NCBI RefSeq assembly: GCF_000007345.1
Contig: NC_003552.1
Coordinates: 5,146,001 to 5,210,000, forward strand
Direction of reading: 5' to 3'
Source: Methanosarcina acetivorans C2A
Lineage (GTDB): Archaea > Halobacteriota > Methanosarcinia > Methanosarcinales > Methanosarcinaceae
DNA length: 64,000 bases
The notes beneath the pieces were generated by a model, which had not been told where the DNA came from, made no database searches, and saw nothing but the letters and a program-made list of their open reading frames with translations. How positions within the stretch are numbered: the stretch's first letter is position 1; each line of letters begins with the position of its first letter. The translations under genes and the position numbers were made by a program. Shown piece after piece: positions 948-10,819 of the stretch.

Positions 948-997
948 ATACAACCTCTTGAAATTAAAAACCGGGACTTTCTTACCTTTGACATGTG

Positions 998-1033
998 GAG
1001 TTCAAATCTACTCTAGAAAGTTCGTTTGAACTC
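998..1033 (-). promoter_or_regulatory. Dyad element upstream of NosD-type gene (copy 1)
   Basis: The inverted arms GAGTTCAAA (998-1006) and TTTGAACTC (1025-1033) are separated by 18 nt. The same arms, the same 18-nt spacing and most of the spacer recur at 8918-8957, upstream of another secreted-protein gene. Conservation of the spacer as well as the arms suggests a regulator-binding site or a structured leader. The function is inferred only. Confidence 0.55.
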
Positions 1034-1290
1034 TACCAAATATCTTTTTAAATGTTCATTTTTCCATGAACTTACTTTTATAATTAATTTGTGGCCAAGT
1101 CATCCAACTGACAGGATATATAAATTAAAATCCGAGTTTTTTTGAGATTTATAGAGGAATTAGATTGATAGTTAGATGATTTGGCCATAAAACATTAAAA
1201 GAACTAGTAAAAATGAGTTTATGGAGTTTGGAAGTATTTCCGTATACCTTATTGGTAAGCATTAGGTTCTGAAATTAAACGTATATATGT

Positions 1291-3004: not shown

Positions 3005-4056
3005 AATTCAGAAATAAGTAATGTAGATTTTGACTATTATACTTACTTTTTTGGTCTGTACTCACAAGGAAATAATGTAATTACAAGATACGGAAAACTT
3101 CCTGTACTGGAAACTGAGGATCAAAAAGAAAACTGGAACTCTACTCTTGAAGAAATTAGTAATGAGATAAAAGACACTGTTGTCTCCAAATACATGTATC
3201 CTCATGGAGAGGTAATGACATGTGGGGCTAATGCTAAGGGATGCTTTGTAATTTTGTTTAAGTATGGCAATGTTGACGAGCAGTTAATGGATGAGATCTA
3301 CTCTCTAATAGATAATTCTGCAGAAGAAATGGGTATGCAGGATATTCCAGTAGAATTCGGATACGGAACTTATAGGGAAGTAATTTACCTGGAAGGCATT
3401 AATCGCTGGTACTGGTTTGGGGAAAGTACAGAGAATCTTTCTGAATCTGAGATATATACACTTGAAGAAGTTATGAAGCAAAAAACGGTCATGCTAGTGC
3501 ATAAAACCATTGCAGCTTATGGGAATATTCCTCTGTTAAAAGATAAGAATGAGACAATTACGTGGGTGAATGAGCTGTCTGAGATTGCTAATGCTACCGA
3601 GGAAAAAATCACTCCATATATGGAACAAGGTCAGGTAATTAGATACGCAGCAGGAATTAGATTGGAAGTAGAGATTAACGAAACTTTGTCTCCTGAAGAA
3701 AAAACTTTTCTTGCTGAAGAAATCTACCAGATCATTGATCAGGCGGCAAGAAAACAAAATGTGACAAATGTTCCAGTTATTTTTATGTCGATACCTGAAG
3801 AAGATATAAAAGGATCTGATAATTCAAAAAATAATAATTCCGAATCTGGCATCGGTAGTAGCTCAGGTAGAAATGAATCGAGCAAAAATAACTCTATTCC
3901 AGGCTTCGGATTATTGGGGAGTCTGGCCTGCCTGTGTGGTGGATGGAGGCTCAAGAAAAGATAATGCAGTTTGAAAACTCCAGGACACTGGAGATTGGTA
4001 ACCTGTTGCCTTTCGAGTCTCAACTAAATTTTAGGTGCTTAAAAAACACCAGGACA

Positions 4057-5720
4057 GGCTGTCTCATAACCATTTTAAATTGTACAATTGGGTAATACCC
4101 ATTTCAATTTTTATTTCATTTCAACAATGAGAGATAATTTTCATGGGTCAACATAGAGTATTTGTTATTCTCGCTCGAATTCCCCCTTTATTCCATCCTT
4201 TACTTCCTCCTCCAACTATCATTTTCAGCATACTTTTCAGGTTTTTCCCTTCTCTTTTTATAAAGTCTGCTATTTTCTTTATATTATGTACAGTACACAT
4301 CATAACAAATTCAATTCCTGTCTTCCTTTTTCCTCTCAATAAGAATTCTCTGAACCCTCTATCCTGTTTCATCTGACCAAACACAGGTTCTACGGTAGAC
4401 ATTCTTTTCTGATACTTTTCTGTCCCCTTCTCTGTGTTCAGTTTATCCCTCATATCATCCATCAAATGTTCCCTAGGATCTCTTGTTATTGTCCTTTTTC
4501 CACTCTTAGTACATGCATTTTTCAGCACACACTGAGAACAATAGCTACATACATAACACCTTAAATCAGGTTCACCTTTCCTCTTTTGAATTCTTGTAAA
4601 GGGAATTTCAAATGCAGCCGGACAATAATAGCAGTCTTTTTCTTCATCGTATGTAAAAAGAGACTTCCTGAACTTCCTGGTTTTTCCTTCTTTTTCAGCT
4701 TTATAGAAATTGTCAGGAATATAAGCATCAATGCCTTCTTCCTGTAAAAATTCCAGATTCTCATATGAGAAATAACCTGCATCTGCAAGTACTATTGTTG
4801 GTTTATATCCCAGTGTGTTTTTTACATTCTGTATCATTGGTTCTATTTGATGAAGGTCGTTTTCTTCGTTGACAACGTCTGCTGCAACGATTATTTGCTC
4901 TTTTTCATCAACAGCAACCTGACAATTGTAGGAAGGTTTCTTGCTTCCATCTTTATGCTTCATAATTCGAGCATCGTTATCTGTGATGTTTATTTTTTTC
5001 AGCTTTTCTTCATCAAGCTTCTTCTTAGCAGCTTTTATTTTTTCCAGTCTTTTCTTCTTGTCAACAAGCTCTTCTGGAATCTGATATGGTGTTGAATCAC
5101 CATAAATTTCATCTTCATGTTTATCTGTCTCAATACTCTCTTTAAGTATCTTATCTATTTCTTTTTCGAGAGCATCCGAACTCTTGCTCTGTCTTGATGA
5201 AGCATTTGCCTTAACCTTTGTTCCGTCAATTGAGATACTGGAACCAATCATATCCATTTCTTTACAAAATGTGACAACCTGGGAAAAGATTTCTTTTATA
5301 GGGCCAAGATGAGTTGAACGGAATCGACAAATCGTATGAAAATCAGGTTTTTGCATGGCTGCCAGATACATAAATGCAGTATCAGTTTGAGTCATTTGTT
5401 GCAGTTTACGTGAACTTCTAATGCCTATAAGGTAACCATAAAGTAATATTTTTAAAAGAGGTCTTGGATGATAGGCTGGGCAGCCTTCCTTAGAGTAAGT
5501 GGATTCAATAGCAGTGATATCAACGACATCTACGATGTCGTTTAGTACTCTGGCGATATGGTTTTCAGGAACAAAATCTTCCAGGTCTAACGGAAGTAAA
5601 AACTGCTGCTTTTGATCGTACTTTCGAAACATGGGAAACACTGGAATTTGTTTTGTAAAAAAGATAAAGATTACGGGTTTCTGACCCAAATGTATGATAG
5701 AGTATAGTTTTGAGACAACC
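4057..5720 (-). mobile_element. IS1182-family insertion sequence (about 1.66 kb)
   Basis: The tips are imperfect inverted repeats: GGCTGTCTCATAAC at 4057 and, read inward, GGTTGTCTCAAAAC ending at 5720. Both are followed further in by a TACAATTGGGT or TACATTTGGGT block. The element carries one intact transposase. The flanks show no target duplication, and the gene interrupted on the right (intron reverse transcriptase) does not resume on the left, so the left flank has probably been deleted or rearranged. Confidence 0.75.
4148..5632 (-). CDS. IS1182-family transposase
   Basis: A transposase of about 494 residues from the ATG at 5632 (MFRKYDQKQQFLLPLDLEDF). It has the DUF772-type N-terminal domain (HPRPLLKILLYGYLIGIRSS) and SISIDGTKVKANASS with the first catalytic Asp. 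IIVAADVVNEENDLHQ and IVLADAGYFSYENLE follow. A Cys-rich CxxC cluster (about 360-400, RCYVCSYCSQCVLKNAC) precedes the C-terminal region with the conserved acidic residue (MSTVEPVFGQMKQDRGF). Longer upstream starts up to 5725 cross the IS tip and are not favoured. The frame is undamaged, so the element may still be active. Confidence 0.85.
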   Translation of the reverse strand: MFRKYDQKQQFLLPLDLEDFVPENHIARVLNDIVDVVDITAIESTYSKEGCPAYHPRPLLKILLYGYLIGIRSSRKLQQMTQTDTAFMYLAAMQKPDFHTICRFRSTHLGPIKEIFSQVVTFCKEMDMIGSSISIDGTKVKANASSRQSKSSDALEKEIDKILKESIETDKHEDEIYGDSTPYQIPEELVDKKKRLEKIKAAKKKLDEEKLKKINITDNDARIMKHKDGSKKPSYNCQVAVDEKEQIIVAADVVNEENDLHQIEPMIQNVKNTLGYKPTIVLADAGYFSYENLEFLQEEGIDAYIPDNFYKAEKEGKTRKFRKSLFTYDEEKDCYYCPAAFEIPFTRIQKRKGEPDLRCYVCSYCSQCVLKNACTKSGKRTITRDPREHLMDDMRDKLNTEKGTEKYQKRMSTVEPVFGQMKQDRGFREFLLRGKRKTGIEFVMMCTVHNIKKIADFIKREGKNLKSMLKMIVGGGSKGWNKGGIRARITNTLC

Positions 5721-6506
5721 TGCATTAAGGAGTTTTTCTATCCCATCTAATGTCATATTCGCAAGGAGGGGAGAGATTATAGATCCTTGTGGAGCACCTT
5801 TATCAGTATGGTGGAAAGTATCATCAAAAATGAAACCGGACTTAAGGAATTGGGACAGGATTGAACTATCAGTTGGGATATTGTTCTTGAGCCAGGAATG
5901 GGAAATGTTATCGAAACATCCTTTGATGTCTCCTTCCAGGATCCAGGGGTTTGATGTATCTCGCCAAAGGCATCGGAATGCATATGATGATGCATCCTGT
6001 GCACATTTGAAAAGACGAAAACCGAAGGATCGAGTGTCAGCAGTAGTTTCTGCTACGGGCTGAAGAGCTAGAGAGTACAGTGCTTGCATAGCTCGATCAC
6101 TCATGGTAGGGATGGATAGATGACGTTTAGTGGATTTTCCTGGTTTGGGGATATAGATACGGCGTAGTGGATGTGCTCGATAGTGTCGGTCTGAAAGACT
6201 AAGTGCTGCCTGCATCTTGTCAGATGCAGTAGTCCAAAGTTGACCGTCAACACCAGCAGTTCGTTTGCCATGGTTCTGTGTAACGATTCTTACTGCGAGC
6301 AGTTTAGCTGAGTAGGAATGAGTTAACAAGTATGTGAGTCTTTTAACCAGATTCCAGTTTTTATTGTGTGTTGCCTTTGCAATCCGGGTCTGTAGCCGGT
6401 TAACTCGGTATTTTATTACTTTCCAGTCAATAGAATTCCATTGATTGGCAAGGTTCCGGTCAGTGCGCTTCTCGCTATGAAGCGTCTTTGAATGCTGCAC
6501 TTTCAC
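5721..6506 (-). pseudogene. ltrA: Group II intron reverse transcriptase/maturase, C-terminus lost
   Basis: The GTG start at 6506 follows GGGAGGT with good spacing. The protein has the N-terminal RT-0/RT-1 region (RIAKATHNKNWNLVKRLTYLL; ...KRTAGVDG), then RRIYIPKPGKSTKRHLSIPT, DIKGCFDNISHSWL (palm motif with the first catalytic Asp) and GAPQGSIISPLLANM. It stops at about residue 262, before the YADD catalytic motif, where the IS1182 tip begins. The open frame continues into IS sequence, producing a non-native tail. The enzyme cannot be active as encoded. Confidence 0.8.
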
Positions 6507-7058
6507 TGGTATACCTCCCTTCTTTGCCGTGAAACACCTGTTTCAAGTCAGCGCCCTTTCAGGCTAAGGCATAAACCTTTATCCTGTCAATTGCAGGCAG
6601 GCGTTCGCTTTTTGAAACATCCTCTCCCGTCTACATTATTTGTGGGTCTCGCGACCTCCATACCTCTTTTTGGAGGGATGTATACGGGTTACCAAGTTCA
6701 GTATCGGAGATAATTTTTTTTTCGGCGCTTTAGGAGCCATCTTTAGACCGGGAACCATTCCGTCCGTTTGACATCCTGTGAAATCACCAAGATGACCAGG
6801 TTCCATGCCATTTTGGCTCAAGTGTATCACCCTGTTTTCACTTGTTCATCATGACGATCCTTTCGATGATTCAGCGTTTGCTTCTCCATGGCGGCTTTTT
6901 CCCTAGCAGATTGTATAGATCAGGGTTCTATTCTTCTCCACATTGTCCTGTAGGCTTCACACCTTCCCGTTAACCAGGAATGCATGCTACAGTAGGGACA
7001 CCCTAAACGGATAGGGGACGGATTAACCCGCAATCTCTGATACAGCTTCTTGTCGCAC
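5721..7058 (-). mobile_element. Group II intron, 5' part, truncated by IS1182
   Basis: On the minus strand the intron begins at 7058 with GTGCGAC, the group II 5' consensus, right after the istA reading frame. The following roughly 550 nt are noncoding and structured (ribozyme domain I and beyond). They lead into a reverse transcriptase frame that starts at 6506 and is cut at 5721. The rest of the reverse transcriptase and domains V-VI are missing, so self-splicing is not expected. Confidence 0.7.
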
Positions 7059-7359: not shown

Positions 7360-7782
7360 TTAACAAGAGGACTGTCTTTCCGCTTTAACTACTCTCTTTT
7401 TCATGTATAGACAAATTAAGAATATTGTAATATAACCTCCTACCAGACTTGCTTTTGAACTAACTTCAATATTCAATAAGTACGCAAATATCATTAGAAT
7501 AAGCCACAGGAAATAACCTATTAGATTACTTTTTATGATTACTATGTCTTCAATCCTCTTTTTTTCGTCAATTGCACCACTTGAGACTATATAATGCCCT
7601 GTAAACATGAAAAGAATAAGAAGACCCATCGAAACCCAAATATTTATCTGGGTCTGGGCAAAAAAGTTAATTTCAAAGCTCATTGTAATGGTTACAAACA
7701 GCCATAAATACCAAAATATTAACCCAATCAGGAGTCCTATAATCTCTTCAAGTTCTGCTTTAAATATTTTCATGTGGTGCAC
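7360..7782 (-). CDS. Small four-helix membrane protein, unknown function
   Basis: A 140-residue protein with four predicted membrane helices: about residues 14-35 (EIIGLLIGLIFWYLWLFVTI), 47-67, 84-104 and 109-128. The C-terminus is basic and ends in Ser-Ser-Cys. The start is either the GTG at 7782 or the ATG at 7773 (MKIFKAEL); no strong ribosome-binding site distinguishes them. It lies between IS debris and a gene for a secreted glycine-zipper protein on the same strand, with about 140 bp between the two. A link such as an immunity or transporter role for that neighbour is possible but not shown by sequence. Confidence 0.55.
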   Translation of the reverse strand: MHHMKIFKAELEEIIGLLIGLIFWYLWLFVTITMSFEINFFAQTQINIWVSMGLLILFMFTGHYIVSSGAIDEKKRIEDIVIIKSNLIGYFLWLILMIFAYLLNIEVSSKASLVGGYITIFLICLYMKKRVVKAERQSSC

Positions 7783-7921
7783 TCTCTAAATTTAATTTTT
7801 TGAAGCGATTATTATTCAAATGTAAACTAATTTTGAAGAGTGATAAAACAACAATTCTTAAAATATAGAAGGACGATATTTAGGCAACATTGTCCTTGAA
7901 CTTCATAAAATTAATGATGCA

Positions 7922-8824
7922 TTATGGGTTCGACAGACCGATAAAGTTCCATAAAGTATAGGAGGCAACTCTGTAGTAATCAGGAACATATTTGGATGTC
8001 AAAGGATTGGGCGGAAGTCCTAGACGCCATCCCCAGTTATGAGCACACCAGCCCCAAATGCATCCCTCTTCATCGAGAAGGATTGAACTTGTTGGCCCAC
8101 CCAATAAAGCTCCCAGTCCTGCTCCAACAATAGCACCAATTCCTCCACCAACTATTAAACCAATTGTCGCTCCAGCTACTGCTGGAGCGCAATCAGCTAT
8201 CGCGTCAGAATATGAGTCTTCAATATGATAATGTTTAAGTTTAGTGCCAGATATATACCAAGTATCAAAAATTTCACCGGTATATGAATCATAATCCGGA
8301 TGAGGATACTTTATGCCAGACCCCTTAACAAAATGTACACCATCCCACGTATATTTTGTGGAAGTGATAGCATTAACAGTTTCAGTGCCTTGCTTAGCAG
8401 AAGAGCCACCAAGTATTTCTTTCATCGAACCTGGTACAATAGGATTGTATACTGAAGTTACTGTATTAACTAATTCTCCTTCTTGATACACATCAGTCTT
8501 GAATTTTCCATCAATTTCTGAAACTTTATAGATAATATTCGTCACTTCATTAGTTGTCAGATTTTCAATTTGCATTTCTGCTTCAGTGTGTTCCGGATTA
8601 GACTCGAAGGTTATTAGCGTGTCTCCAACCTGTACTATATTGGAAGTATCATTGATGTTAATAATCTTCAATTCCATTTCAGGTAACTTTGTGACCTCTA
8701 TTTTTTCTTTATCAGCAGAAGATGAAGAAACCGATTCAGCCTGTGCACTCACAGCTGGAACAAAAGCAATACCCACAAGAAGTATTGCTGCAAATATTGC
8801 GCTTATCTTAAGCTTTTCCTTCAT
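7922..8824 (-). CDS. Secreted protein with C-terminal glycine-zipper and Trp/Cys-rich tail
   Basis: The ATG at 8824 is chosen over 8869 because GTGATC lies about 5 nt upstream and a signal peptide follows directly (residues 1-27, KLKISAIFAAILLVGIAFV, cut near VSAQA). The middle (30-190) is hydrophilic without a recognised domain. Near residue 205 comes ADCAPAVAGATIGLIVGGGI and then GAIVGAGLGALLGG, a classic glycine-zipper hydrophobic hairpin. A tail with GCIWGWCAHNWGW follows. Such zippers occur in pore-forming and bacteriocin-like peptides and in membrane-inserting outer-layer proteins, so an antimicrobial or membrane-active role is conceivable. Full length is about 300 residues. A dyad (8918-8957) shared with the gene at 1-947 lies upstream. 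Confidence 0.65.
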   Translation of the reverse strand: MKEKLKISAIFAAILLVGIAFVPAVSAQAESVSSSSADKEKIEVTKLPEMELKIININDTSNIVQVGDTLITFESNPEHTEAEMQIENLTTNEVTNIIYKVSEIDGKFKTDVYQEGELVNTVTSVYNPIVPGSMKEILGGSSAKQGTETVNAITSTKYTWDGVHFVKGSGIKYPHPDYDSYTGEIFDTWYISGTKLKHYHIEDSYSDAIADCAPAVAGATIGLIVGGGIGAIVGAGLGALLGGPTSSILLDEEGCIWGWCAHNWGWRLGLPPNPLTSKYVPDYYRVASYTLWNFIGLSNP

Positions 8825-8917: not shown

Positions 8918-8957
8918 TGGAGTTCAAATCTACTCTGGAAGGTGCGTTTGAACTCCA
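8918..8957 (-). promoter_or_regulatory. Dyad element upstream of glycine-zipper gene (copy 2)
   Basis: TGGAGTTCAAA (8918-8928) and TTTGAACTCCA (8947-8957) form perfect 11-bp inverted arms with an 18-nt spacer. The spacer differs from copy 1 (998-1033) at only a few positions. It lies 93 nt before the start at 8824. Confidence 0.55.
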
Positions 8958-9625: not shown

Positions 9626-10819
9626 TTAATATACAGGAATCAATCCCGGATTGTCCCCTGTAATACACTCTCCGCCTTTTGCAGTTACTATGAAGGTATT
9701 CTCAATGCCTACCATTCCGATATTTTCAATCCCCCTTTTGGGTTCGAGGGCAAATACCATTCCTTCCTTCAGAGGCTCGTCAAACCCGGCGGCAATTACG
9801 GGAGTTTCATCGATCAACAGGCCGACGGCGTGCCCGAGAAATTTCACTTTACGGTTGCCAAAACCCATGAAGTTTTGCAGGAATTCCTTATCGAGCCCAT
9901 TCATTATTGTAGTATAGATTTCAGAGGGAGCAATTCCGGGTTTTAACATCGCTGCAGCTTCGTTCTGTATATCCACACATTTATTGTGGAGATCCATAGC
10001 ATACTGAGGGAGAGGAGAGCCAAACATGTATGTCGTTGTTTTATCCGTATGGTAGCCGTCAACCCCGCAGCCGACATCAACAAAGACAAGGTCACCTTTC
10101 CTTAATTTACGATCCCGGCTCCCGAGCACGGGTGCTGCAGGGCTCAATCCTAGCTTTCCGCCAGGCCCGTTAAAATAACACGGATAGATAGAGCTTTCCC
10201 CAAAACAGACATTTCCCAGAATCATCTCCGTATCGAACATGCCAAAACGGCATGCTCCGTGGTGCCCTTCTTCTACCAGAACAGAAAACAGTTCGGTTGA
10301 CAGGTCAGCCTCGCTCATCCCTTCGCGCAGCATGCCGGGCACGAGGTCTTCAAGCACATGCCGATGGATCTGGCCTGCTTCTCGCAACAGGGATAGTTCA
10401 TATTCACTTTTTACTGCCCTAATGGCACAGACCTGGGCATCGACGGATTTAACGTTCTTAAAGGGGAAATACTTTTGAAATCTCTGGTATAAAGCCAGAG
10501 GGACTACTTCGGTTTCCAGATACACCGCGTCAGGCAGCTTGCTTGCATCCCCTGCAGCATCACGGAAGCTTTTCATGGGTTCGATATTCGGGAATAATGA
10601 TTCGTCCAGAGCCCTTTCATAACTGCGGCGGACCCAGAGTGTTGCTTCTCCGTTTTTCGGAATAATCAACATTCCGTCCTGCATCGTACCGGTAAAGTAA
10701 TAGATGTTTATTTTGCTGAAGATTACGGCAGTCTCCCACTGGGGGTTTGAGACATCCATCTGTTTTCTAAAGCAGTTCATACGGTTTTTCAATTCGGTCA
10801 AAGGCACTTTTTTAATCAT
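9626..10819 (-). CDS. M24 family metallopeptidase (Xaa-Pro aminopeptidase/prolidase-like)
   Basis: A 397-residue two-domain protein. Residues 1-130 form the creatinase-like N-terminal domain, and 140-397 the pita-bread catalytic domain. The five metal ligands expected for the family are visible: Asp248 and Asp259 ([17 protein letters not shown]), His330 (LGHAVG), Glu359 (FALEPK) and Glu373 (GIENTF). It is predicted to be cytosolic and to remove residues next to proline, or to act on related peptide-like substrates. It stands alone, with a decayed regulator downstream and a 510-bp gap with tandem repeats upstream. The length is normal for the family. Confidence 0.88.

What the first reader, a model, noticed from the sequence alone, without database searches (positions are those of the whole stretch)
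7360..8824. Secreted glycine-zipper protein with Trp/Cys-rich tail beside a four-helix membrane protein
The C-terminus combines a GxxxG-rich hydrophobic hairpin with GCIWGWCAHNWGW, features of membrane-active peptides. A small multi-helix membrane protein is the next gene on the same strand. The pair could be a bacteriocin-like peptide precursor with an immunity or export partner, although no such system is established here.
Basis: inference. Interest (0 to 1): 0.5.

Follow-up and report, generated by a model that had tools for sequence, protein, structure and literature searches.

The report
Likely archaeal toxin and immunity pair
A methane-producing archaeon carries a gene for an exported, membrane-seeking protein beside a gene for a small membrane protein, and the way this pair is inherited, swapped and lost in related archaea looks like a secreted toxin with its protecting immunity protein, although no activity has been measured.

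Summary
The features are real. A 300-aa protein with a signal peptide, a Gly-rich hydrophobic stretch and a Trp-rich tail (7922-8824, minus) lies 148 bp upstream of a four-helix membrane protein (7360-7773, minus). Neither reaches a Pfam or NCBIfam cut-off. The second Cys is in 1 of 15 homologues, so a conserved disulfide loop is unlikely.

The pairing is old. All 14 homologues judged intact lie next to a homologue of the membrane gene, from Methanosarcina to Methanomicrobiales and Archaeoglobi. The reverse is not true: of 48 membrane-gene sites in the order, 9 have an intact secreted partner, 2 a disrupted one, 6 a remnant and 31 none. Membrane genes also occur in tandem arrays.

At one chromosomal site, two Methanosarcina genomes share the flanks, promoter and signal peptide (94% identical upstream) but carry different mature proteins and different small membrane genes. 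Another genome stacks a second precursor and its membrane gene on the remnant of the first, with the old membrane gene kept.

Best reading: a swappable secreted toxin with a cognate membrane immunity protein (a polymorphic archaeocin-like system). Killing, processing and target are untested; a membrane-assembly partner or signal receptor remains possible.

The parts
7922..8824 (-). secreted precursor, 300 aa (with stop codon)
   Evidence: homologues
8741..8824 (-). signal peptide (residues 1-28, MKEKLKISAIFAAILLVGIAFVPAVSAQ); DNA similarity to other payload types ends at about this boundary
   Evidence: cleavage site inferred, not predicted by a dedicated program
8450..8677 (-). N-terminal beta-rich region of the mature protein (residues 50-125), possible pro-domain or delivery part
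   Evidence: strands between 51 and 124, block pLDDT mostly 61-82; role inferred
8219..8353 (-). conserved block YTWDGV..GSGIKYPHPDY..YISGTKLKHYHI (residues 158-202)
   Evidence: alignments A4, A7
8093..8188 (-). Gly-rich (GxxxG) hydrophobic stretch, residues 213-244
7925..8074 (-). Trp-rich tail, residues 251-300 (DEEGCIWGW ... YYRVASYTLWNFIGLSNP)
7869..7897 (-). stem-loop between the two genes; similar AGGACGA...TCGTCCT stem-loops in several relatives; could end transcription of the secreted gene
   Evidence: z = -2.66 here; function inferred; the consensus scan did not list it
7360..7773 (-). four-helix membrane protein, 137 aa (with stop codon); proposed immunity protein
8918..8957 (.). 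inverted repeat TGGAGTTCAAA-N18-TTTGAACTCCA, 94-133 bases upstream of the ATG; shared by three types of precursor; operator-like

Best explanation
The pair is a secreted toxin and its immunity protein, of the polymorphic (payload-swapping) kind. Shown: the precursor has a signal peptide, a beta-rich N-terminal region, a conserved GxxxG hydrophobic stretch and a Trp-rich tail; a four-helix membrane protein is encoded beside every homologue judged intact; the membrane gene is often kept alone or in arrays; and at one locus the mature part plus the membrane gene is exchanged as a unit behind a constant promoter and signal peptide. Inferred: the protein is exported, its hydrophobic part inserts into the membrane of related archaea and makes it leaky, the N-terminal region keeps it harmless or delivers it, and the neighbouring membrane protein sits in the producer's membrane and blocks the cognate toxin. 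Orphan membrane genes would protect against kin that still make an older toxin.
For: (1) 14 of 14 homologues judged intact, and 5 of 5 disrupted or 5'-uncertain ones, lie beside a profile-detected homologue of the membrane gene; a very divergent 20th (L280) has a four-TM neighbour that the profile does not match. (2) Asymmetry: 48 membrane-gene sites in 185 genomes of the order = 9 intact partner, 2 disrupted, 6 remnant, 31 none. (3) Tandem arrays of three or four membrane paralogues in G167 and G168. (4) Orphan membrane genes compared with each other show dN/dS below 1 (0.17-0.96 in all listed pairs; 0.30-0.39 for G013/G015/G001). (5) Same-site swap: L270 (G018) and L186 (G028) share both flanks (94% from -646 to +83 of the ATG, 85% over 3.8 kb downstream) but carry type A plus membrane gene A against type B plus membrane gene B, with no cross-match. 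(6) G004:C104 reads type-B precursor, its 60-aa membrane gene, a remnant of the type-A tail, membrane gene A (92% identical to this one). (7) Tandem type-B precursors in G026 are 134/137 identical in the pro-region but 26/42 in the hydrophobic stretch, and their membrane genes are 65% identical. (8) A shared inverted repeat upstream of type A, B and C precursors. (9) Distances of paired proteins correlate (Mantel r = 0.69, P = 0.0001, 15 pairs).
Against: No toxicity, processing or immunity has been measured. No match to any named bacteriocin or immunity family. The structure of the secreted protein is not resolved (pLDDT 51). The signal peptide, promoter and inverted repeat are shared with other secreted proteins that are not of this kind, so sharing them does not by itself mark a toxin. 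In G167 and G168 the domain is followed by about 260-280 aa more and the membrane gene lies upstream. The Mantel result would also follow from plain co-descent. Some orphan comparisons approach dN/dS 1, one pair of partnered membrane genes (G029/G011) gives 1.4, and several membrane genes are decaying. 31 of 48 membrane-gene sites have no secreted partner, which also fits a membrane protein with a separate job.
Confidence: 0.65

Rival explanations
1. A surface or structural protein with a dedicated membrane assembly or anchoring factor: the glycine-zipper part docks onto the four-helix protein.
For: Glycine zippers occur in structural envelope proteins (weak, sub-threshold matches to Gly-zipper models); in G167 and G168 the domain sits in larger secreted proteins of about 580-610 aa; strict adjacency suits any obligate partner.
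Against: The membrane gene is often alone, tandem or stacked under another precursor type; the pair is exchanged as a unit with another pair at one site; full-length precursors are in only 10 of 185 genomes of the order.
Confidence: 0.17
2. A secreted signal and its membrane receptor (a peptide pheromone system).
For: Secreted protein plus membrane protein, diverging together; shared operator-like repeat upstream.
Against: The membrane protein has no detectable signalling domain; receptor arrays that outlive the signal are less expected; the hydrophobic stretch is the part that diverges between tandem type-B copies.
Confidence: 0.1
3. An intracellular toxin-antitoxin or addiction pair, not meant for other cells.
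For: Patchy distribution and two-gene unit.
Against: A signal peptide is present in most full-length members; no match on plasmids or in viral contigs; the two genes appear to be separated by a stem-loop.
Confidence: 0.05

Closest known systems
Type VI effector-immunity arrays of Vibrio cholerae (PMC5361080, abstract and section list read)
   Same: New effector-immunity pairs displace old effectors while old immunity genes are kept downstream as orphan arrays.
   Different: There the effector is injected by a type VI machine; here a signal peptide is the only export feature seen, the organism is an archaeon and the resemblance is in gene order only.
Halocin C8 with its immunity part (archaeocins; details recalled; PMC10105419, passages read, states that halocins and sulfolobicins were the only archaeocins described so far)
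   Same: Archaeal secreted precursor with a membrane-directed or hydrophobic active part and a dedicated immunity function.
   Different: As recalled, halocin C8 is a small Cys-rich peptide cut from one precursor that also yields its immunity protein; here immunity would be a separate four-helix membrane protein, and no halocin model was among the matches.
Sporulation-delaying protein SdpC and immunity SdpI of Bacillus (recalled)
   Same: Secreted precursor giving a membrane-active hairpin, with a multi-TM immunity protein encoded nearby.
   Different: No match to such models in Pfam or NCBIfam; Cys260 is not conserved; relatives of the SdpAB processing proteins were not looked for.
VARTIG modules of Thermococcales (PMC8416519, passages read)
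   Same: Archaeal hypervariable locus with recombination, in which distinct membrane proteins follow particular subfamilies of the variable protein.
   Different: VARTIG is built on Ig-domain proteins; none was detected here.

Membership tests
Polymorphic toxin-immunity systems (as a kind) | constant N-terminal trafficking part joined to swappable C-terminal payloads | tested here: met
   94% identity from -646 to +83 between a type-A and a type-B precursor at one syntenic site, mature parts without BLAST similarity and at most remotely related by profile
Polymorphic toxin-immunity systems (as a kind) | each payload with its own adjacent immunity gene | tested here: met
   type A 14 of 14 intact; types B and C with 60-81 aa membrane genes directly downstream in the fetched loci. 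Adjacency was tested; immunity function itself was not
Polymorphic toxin-immunity systems (as a kind) | orphan or tandem immunity genes | tested here: met
   31 of 48 sites without secreted partner; arrays in G167, G168
Polymorphic toxin-immunity systems (as a kind) | payload kills or inhibits competitors | not testable with these tools
   needs an experiment
Halocin C8-like archaeocins | match to a halocin model | tested here: inconclusive
   no halocin model among the NCBIfam matches or Pfam matches; whether the libraries hold such a model was not checked
SdpC/SdpI family | sequence match to the family models | tested here: inconclusive
   no such match at E up to 5 for either protein; presence of the models in the libraries was not checked separately
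SdpC/SdpI family | conserved Cys pair for the disulfide of the mature peptide (recalled) | tested here: not met
   Cys260 in 1 of 15, Cys255 in 12 of 15
Glycine-zipper envelope proteins (Pfam Gly-zipper_YMGG and relatives) | score at or above the Pfam cut-off | tested here: not met
   18.1 bits against a cut-off of 28.9; others lower

The most novel reading that the evidence does not exclude
Methanogens and their relatives run a modular secreted-toxin arsenal: one regulated promoter and signal peptide onto which membrane-active payloads, each with its own small membrane immunity gene, are exchanged at the signal-peptide boundary, leaving a fossil record of old immunity genes. At least three payload types (A here, B and C) share one operator-like repeat. 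If so, this is a polymorphic archaeocin system of Halobacteriota without any dedicated secretion machine.
Probability: 0.5. Interest if true: 0.75.

Novelty: new variant of a known kind. Interest (0 to 1): 0.6.

Why it matters
Antagonism among methanogens is little explored; one paper's introduction (PMC10105419, passages read) counts only halocins and sulfolobicins as described archaeocins. It also marks several dozen unannotated genes as likely conflict genes. How far this was foreseen by the 2019 survey of archaeal conflict systems (Makarova et al., mBio) could not be checked, as that paper is not held.

Tried and rejected
Signal-peptide matches: most of the 28 of 79 genomes hit by the whole precursor match only about residues 1-60, that is the shared signal peptide; these were not counted as homologues. 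Curated families: no match at cut-off in Pfam or NCBIfam for either protein, and none in PADLOC or PHROGs at E below 0.02; the 21 membrane homologues give only scattered weak matches. Solved structures: no sequence match for either profile. Foldseek and VIA-align matches were weak: the membrane protein resembles generic helical bundles and GPCR segments, and the N-terminal beta region of the secreted protein reaches Z 6.4 with a DUF3836 protein over 84 residues (rmsd 2.9); I draw no conclusion from these. Type A against type C mature profiles: no relation; type B against type C: none. Type A against type B: 67.6% hhalign probability over 60 columns at the hydrophobic stretch, treated as a lead only. 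Mobile-element origin: no match in plasmids or viral contigs. Cys-disulfide idea: rejected by conservation. In the loci fetched, 15 of 19 secreted proteins with a C-terminal hydrophobic segment were followed by a small multi-TM gene by a strict rule, against 5 of 15 without (Fisher P = 0.013); the loci had been chosen by homology, so this is not a clean control. The stem-loop between the genes folds better than shuffles in 3 of 5 sequences given; the stretches chosen for L059 and L062 gave none, and those stretches probably cut off the left arm of the stem.

Full report
Where it is. The window is G000:C1:5146001-5210000 of a 5,751,492-base single-contig genome. The size and gene content fit Methanosarcina acetivorans C2A (recalled; no tool named it). 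Both genes are on the minus strand: the secreted protein at 7922-8824 and the membrane protein at 7360-7773, 148 bp apart. Upstream lies an M24 peptidase gene (9626-10819; Pfam match); downstream lie remains of a group II intron (6884-7018) with a reverse-transcriptase-like fragment and a transposase-like gene (both named by eye).

What the secreted protein looks like. It has a 28-residue signal peptide (by eye), a beta-rich region at residues 50-125 that AlphaFold2 models with moderate confidence, a conserved block around WDGV...KYPHPDY...HYHI, a GxxxG hydrophobic stretch (213-244) and a Trp-rich tail. Six GxxxG pairs lie in the stretch against 3.1 expected from its own composition (P = 0.027). 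In 15 paired homologues Gly218, 230 and 234, Trp257, Thr290, Trp292 and Pro300 are invariant, whereas Cys260 occurs only here and Cys255 in 12 of 15. So glycines and tryptophans are family features and the Cys pair is not.

What the membrane protein looks like. AlphaFold2 gives a confident four-helix bundle (mean pLDDT 88.6, pTM 0.81, 21 sequences). No Pfam or NCBIfam model reaches its cut-off for this protein, its 21 aligned relatives give only scattered weak Pfam matches, and no solved structure matches its sequence profile.

Distribution and pairing. In 185 genomes of the order, long homologues of the secreted protein are in 10 (one of these, G011, is broken and one, G119, lacks its 5' part) and homologues of the membrane protein in 33. 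A phylum-wide sample of 392 genomes added members of a further family of the phylum, and a scan of named genomes added Methanomicrobiales, Methanoculleus, Geoglobus and another Archaeoglobi MAG (two of these are the same contigs as G356 and G416 by length). Fourteen homologues look intact: G000, G018, G029, G175, G133, G123, G168 (two), G167, L275, G356, G416, G301 and G214. All 14 lie on the same strand beside a profile-detected homologue of the membrane gene, mostly 20-200 bp away and 398 bp in G029. In G416 the membrane gene is split between two frames. Five disrupted or 5'-uncertain copies (G011, G119, UBA293, Methanoculleus, G312) are paired too. L280 is very divergent (28% identity) and has a four-TM neighbour that the profile does not recognise. 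In G167 and G168 the membrane gene lies upstream, in G168 once as an array of three, and the secreted gene extends to about 580-610 aa.

Asymmetry. A profile scan of 48 membrane-gene sites found an intact secreted partner at 9, a disrupted one at 2, a remnant at 6 and none at 31. Two of the 31 (L084, L085) are cut by contig ends, and L269 is only a fragment. Remnants include tails of about 20-30 residues ending in a YTLWN.....NP-like stretch upstream of a membrane gene in G004:C104, G013 and G027 and G158. No intact secreted gene without a neighbouring membrane gene was found; a partial match at a contig end in G071 could not be judged. Orphan membrane genes remain under purifying selection in most comparisons (dN/dS 0.17-0.96). 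Tandem arrays of three or four paralogues occur in G167 and G168.

Swapping at one site. Many Methanosarcina precursors share the promoter and signal peptide but not the mature protein. Among 17 precursor loci compared, the DNA similarity between different payload types ends close to the signal-peptide boundary: type A of G018 against type B of G028 is 94.3% identical from -646 to +83; type A of G000 against type B of G028 is 93.8% from -105 to +88; type B of G026 against type C of G039 is 87% from -700 to +85. G018 and G028 are the same chromosomal site: 94-96% identity upstream and 85% over 3.8 kb downstream, with type A plus membrane gene A in one and type B plus the 61-aa membrane gene B in the other, and no cross-match. 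The site next to the M24 peptidase gene carries type A in G000 and G018, type B in G014 and only an orphan membrane gene of the A family in G020.

Stacking. G004:C104 reads: intact type-B precursor, intact 60-aa membrane gene, remnant of the type-A tail, intact membrane gene A (92% identical to this one). G002 has two other small hydrophobic ORFs, then the type-A 3' end with its stem-loop, then a damaged membrane gene A. G044 has three small membrane genes in a row. This is the pattern described for type VI effector-immunity arrays, in which new pairs displace old effectors but old immunity genes stay (PMC5361080, abstract read).

Where specificity may lie. Two tandem type-B precursors in G026 are 134/137 identical in the pro-region, 26/42 in the hydrophobic stretch and 31/41 in the tail; their membrane genes are 65% identical. 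The precursors of G028 and G014 show the same trend (121/131, 27/42, 34/41). Divergence concentrated in the hydrophobic stretch is what a toxin under diversifying pressure would show; this is an inference.

Regulation. An inverted repeat TGGAGTTCAAA-N18-TTTGAACTCCA stands about 130 bp upstream of the ATG. Both arms match at 10 or more of 11 positions in 10 of 17 precursor loci (two type A, six type B, two type C), at 8 or more in two further ones, and it is not found there in five. In the home genome the pattern (up to 3 mismatches) occurs at five places and the reversed control at none; one is this gene, two precede other secreted proteins (at 668.6 and 671.6 kb), one is at window 996-1035 and one is a weak match. 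The control element is therefore shared with secreted proteins that are not of this kind. A stem-loop between the two genes suggests that the membrane gene may be transcribed on its own.

Judgement. Pairing, asymmetry, arrays, displacement with retained membrane genes and unit-wise swapping behind a constant signal peptide are together best explained by a toxin and its immunity protein. Adjacency alone would also fit an assembly partner or a receptor. What is not shown: export, processing, membrane damage, protection, target range. The closest known kinds are archaeocins and polymorphic toxins; membership in any named sequence family was not established.

Literature. Searches for archaeocins or bacteriocins with Methanosarcina or methanogens and for the archaeal conflict survey showed no paper that, from title and start of abstract, describes this family. 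The 2019 mBio survey is not held and may include some of these genes among its predictions, so I do not claim that the family is unreported.

Noticed in passing
L186, L169, L171, L167, L185, L062 (type B); L188, L184, L174, L183 (type C): Further families of secreted precursors with a C-terminal hydrophobic stretch, most followed by a 60-81 aa membrane gene; those scanned match no curated family at cut-off.
   Followed up: partly
L165 (G002) and L176 (G071): A further precursor type without a hydrophobic stretch (GYFGYD...HHVDSWY...) followed by 61-66 aa membrane genes; no family match.
   Followed up: partly
window 996-1035: Second copy of the inverted repeat (one mismatch) 284 bases upstream of a UPF0228 gene (1319-1864); similar promoter DNA recurs upstream of precursors.
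   Followed up: partly
L062:5536-5631, L067:5034-5099, L071:4226-4288, L259:4450-4530: Remnants of the secreted gene in four loci begin at about the same profile position (267-278) although the loci differ; why the last 20-30 codons outlast the rest is unexplained.
   Followed up: no
L225, L226, L227 (G167, G168): The domain is followed by about 260-280 aa with repeated DDWNPWNDxDS motifs that look dockerin-like by eye; no Pfam match in the two scanned.
   Followed up: partly
L301:1940-2728; L051:260-1108: FilR1-type regulators lie close to a precursor gene (L301) and a membrane gene (L051); a link to the inverted repeat is untested.
   Followed up: partly
L276:2718-3827 and L058 downstream of the pair: A secreted protein with an HExxH motif (weak Reprolysin_5 match) next to the pair in Geoglobus, and a piece that looks related by eye after the pair in G018; could be a processing enzyme or a neighbour by chance.
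   Followed up: no
window 4148-7018: Group II intron 3' part (Rfam RF02012) with a reverse-transcriptase-like fragment and a transposase-like ORF overlapping it, suggesting an insertion into the intron.
   Followed up: no
window 3194-3964: ORF ending in SIPGFGLLGSLACLCGGWRLKKR, a PGF-CTERM-like surface-anchor tail by eye; the same kind of tail recurs in the G002 island.
   Followed up: no
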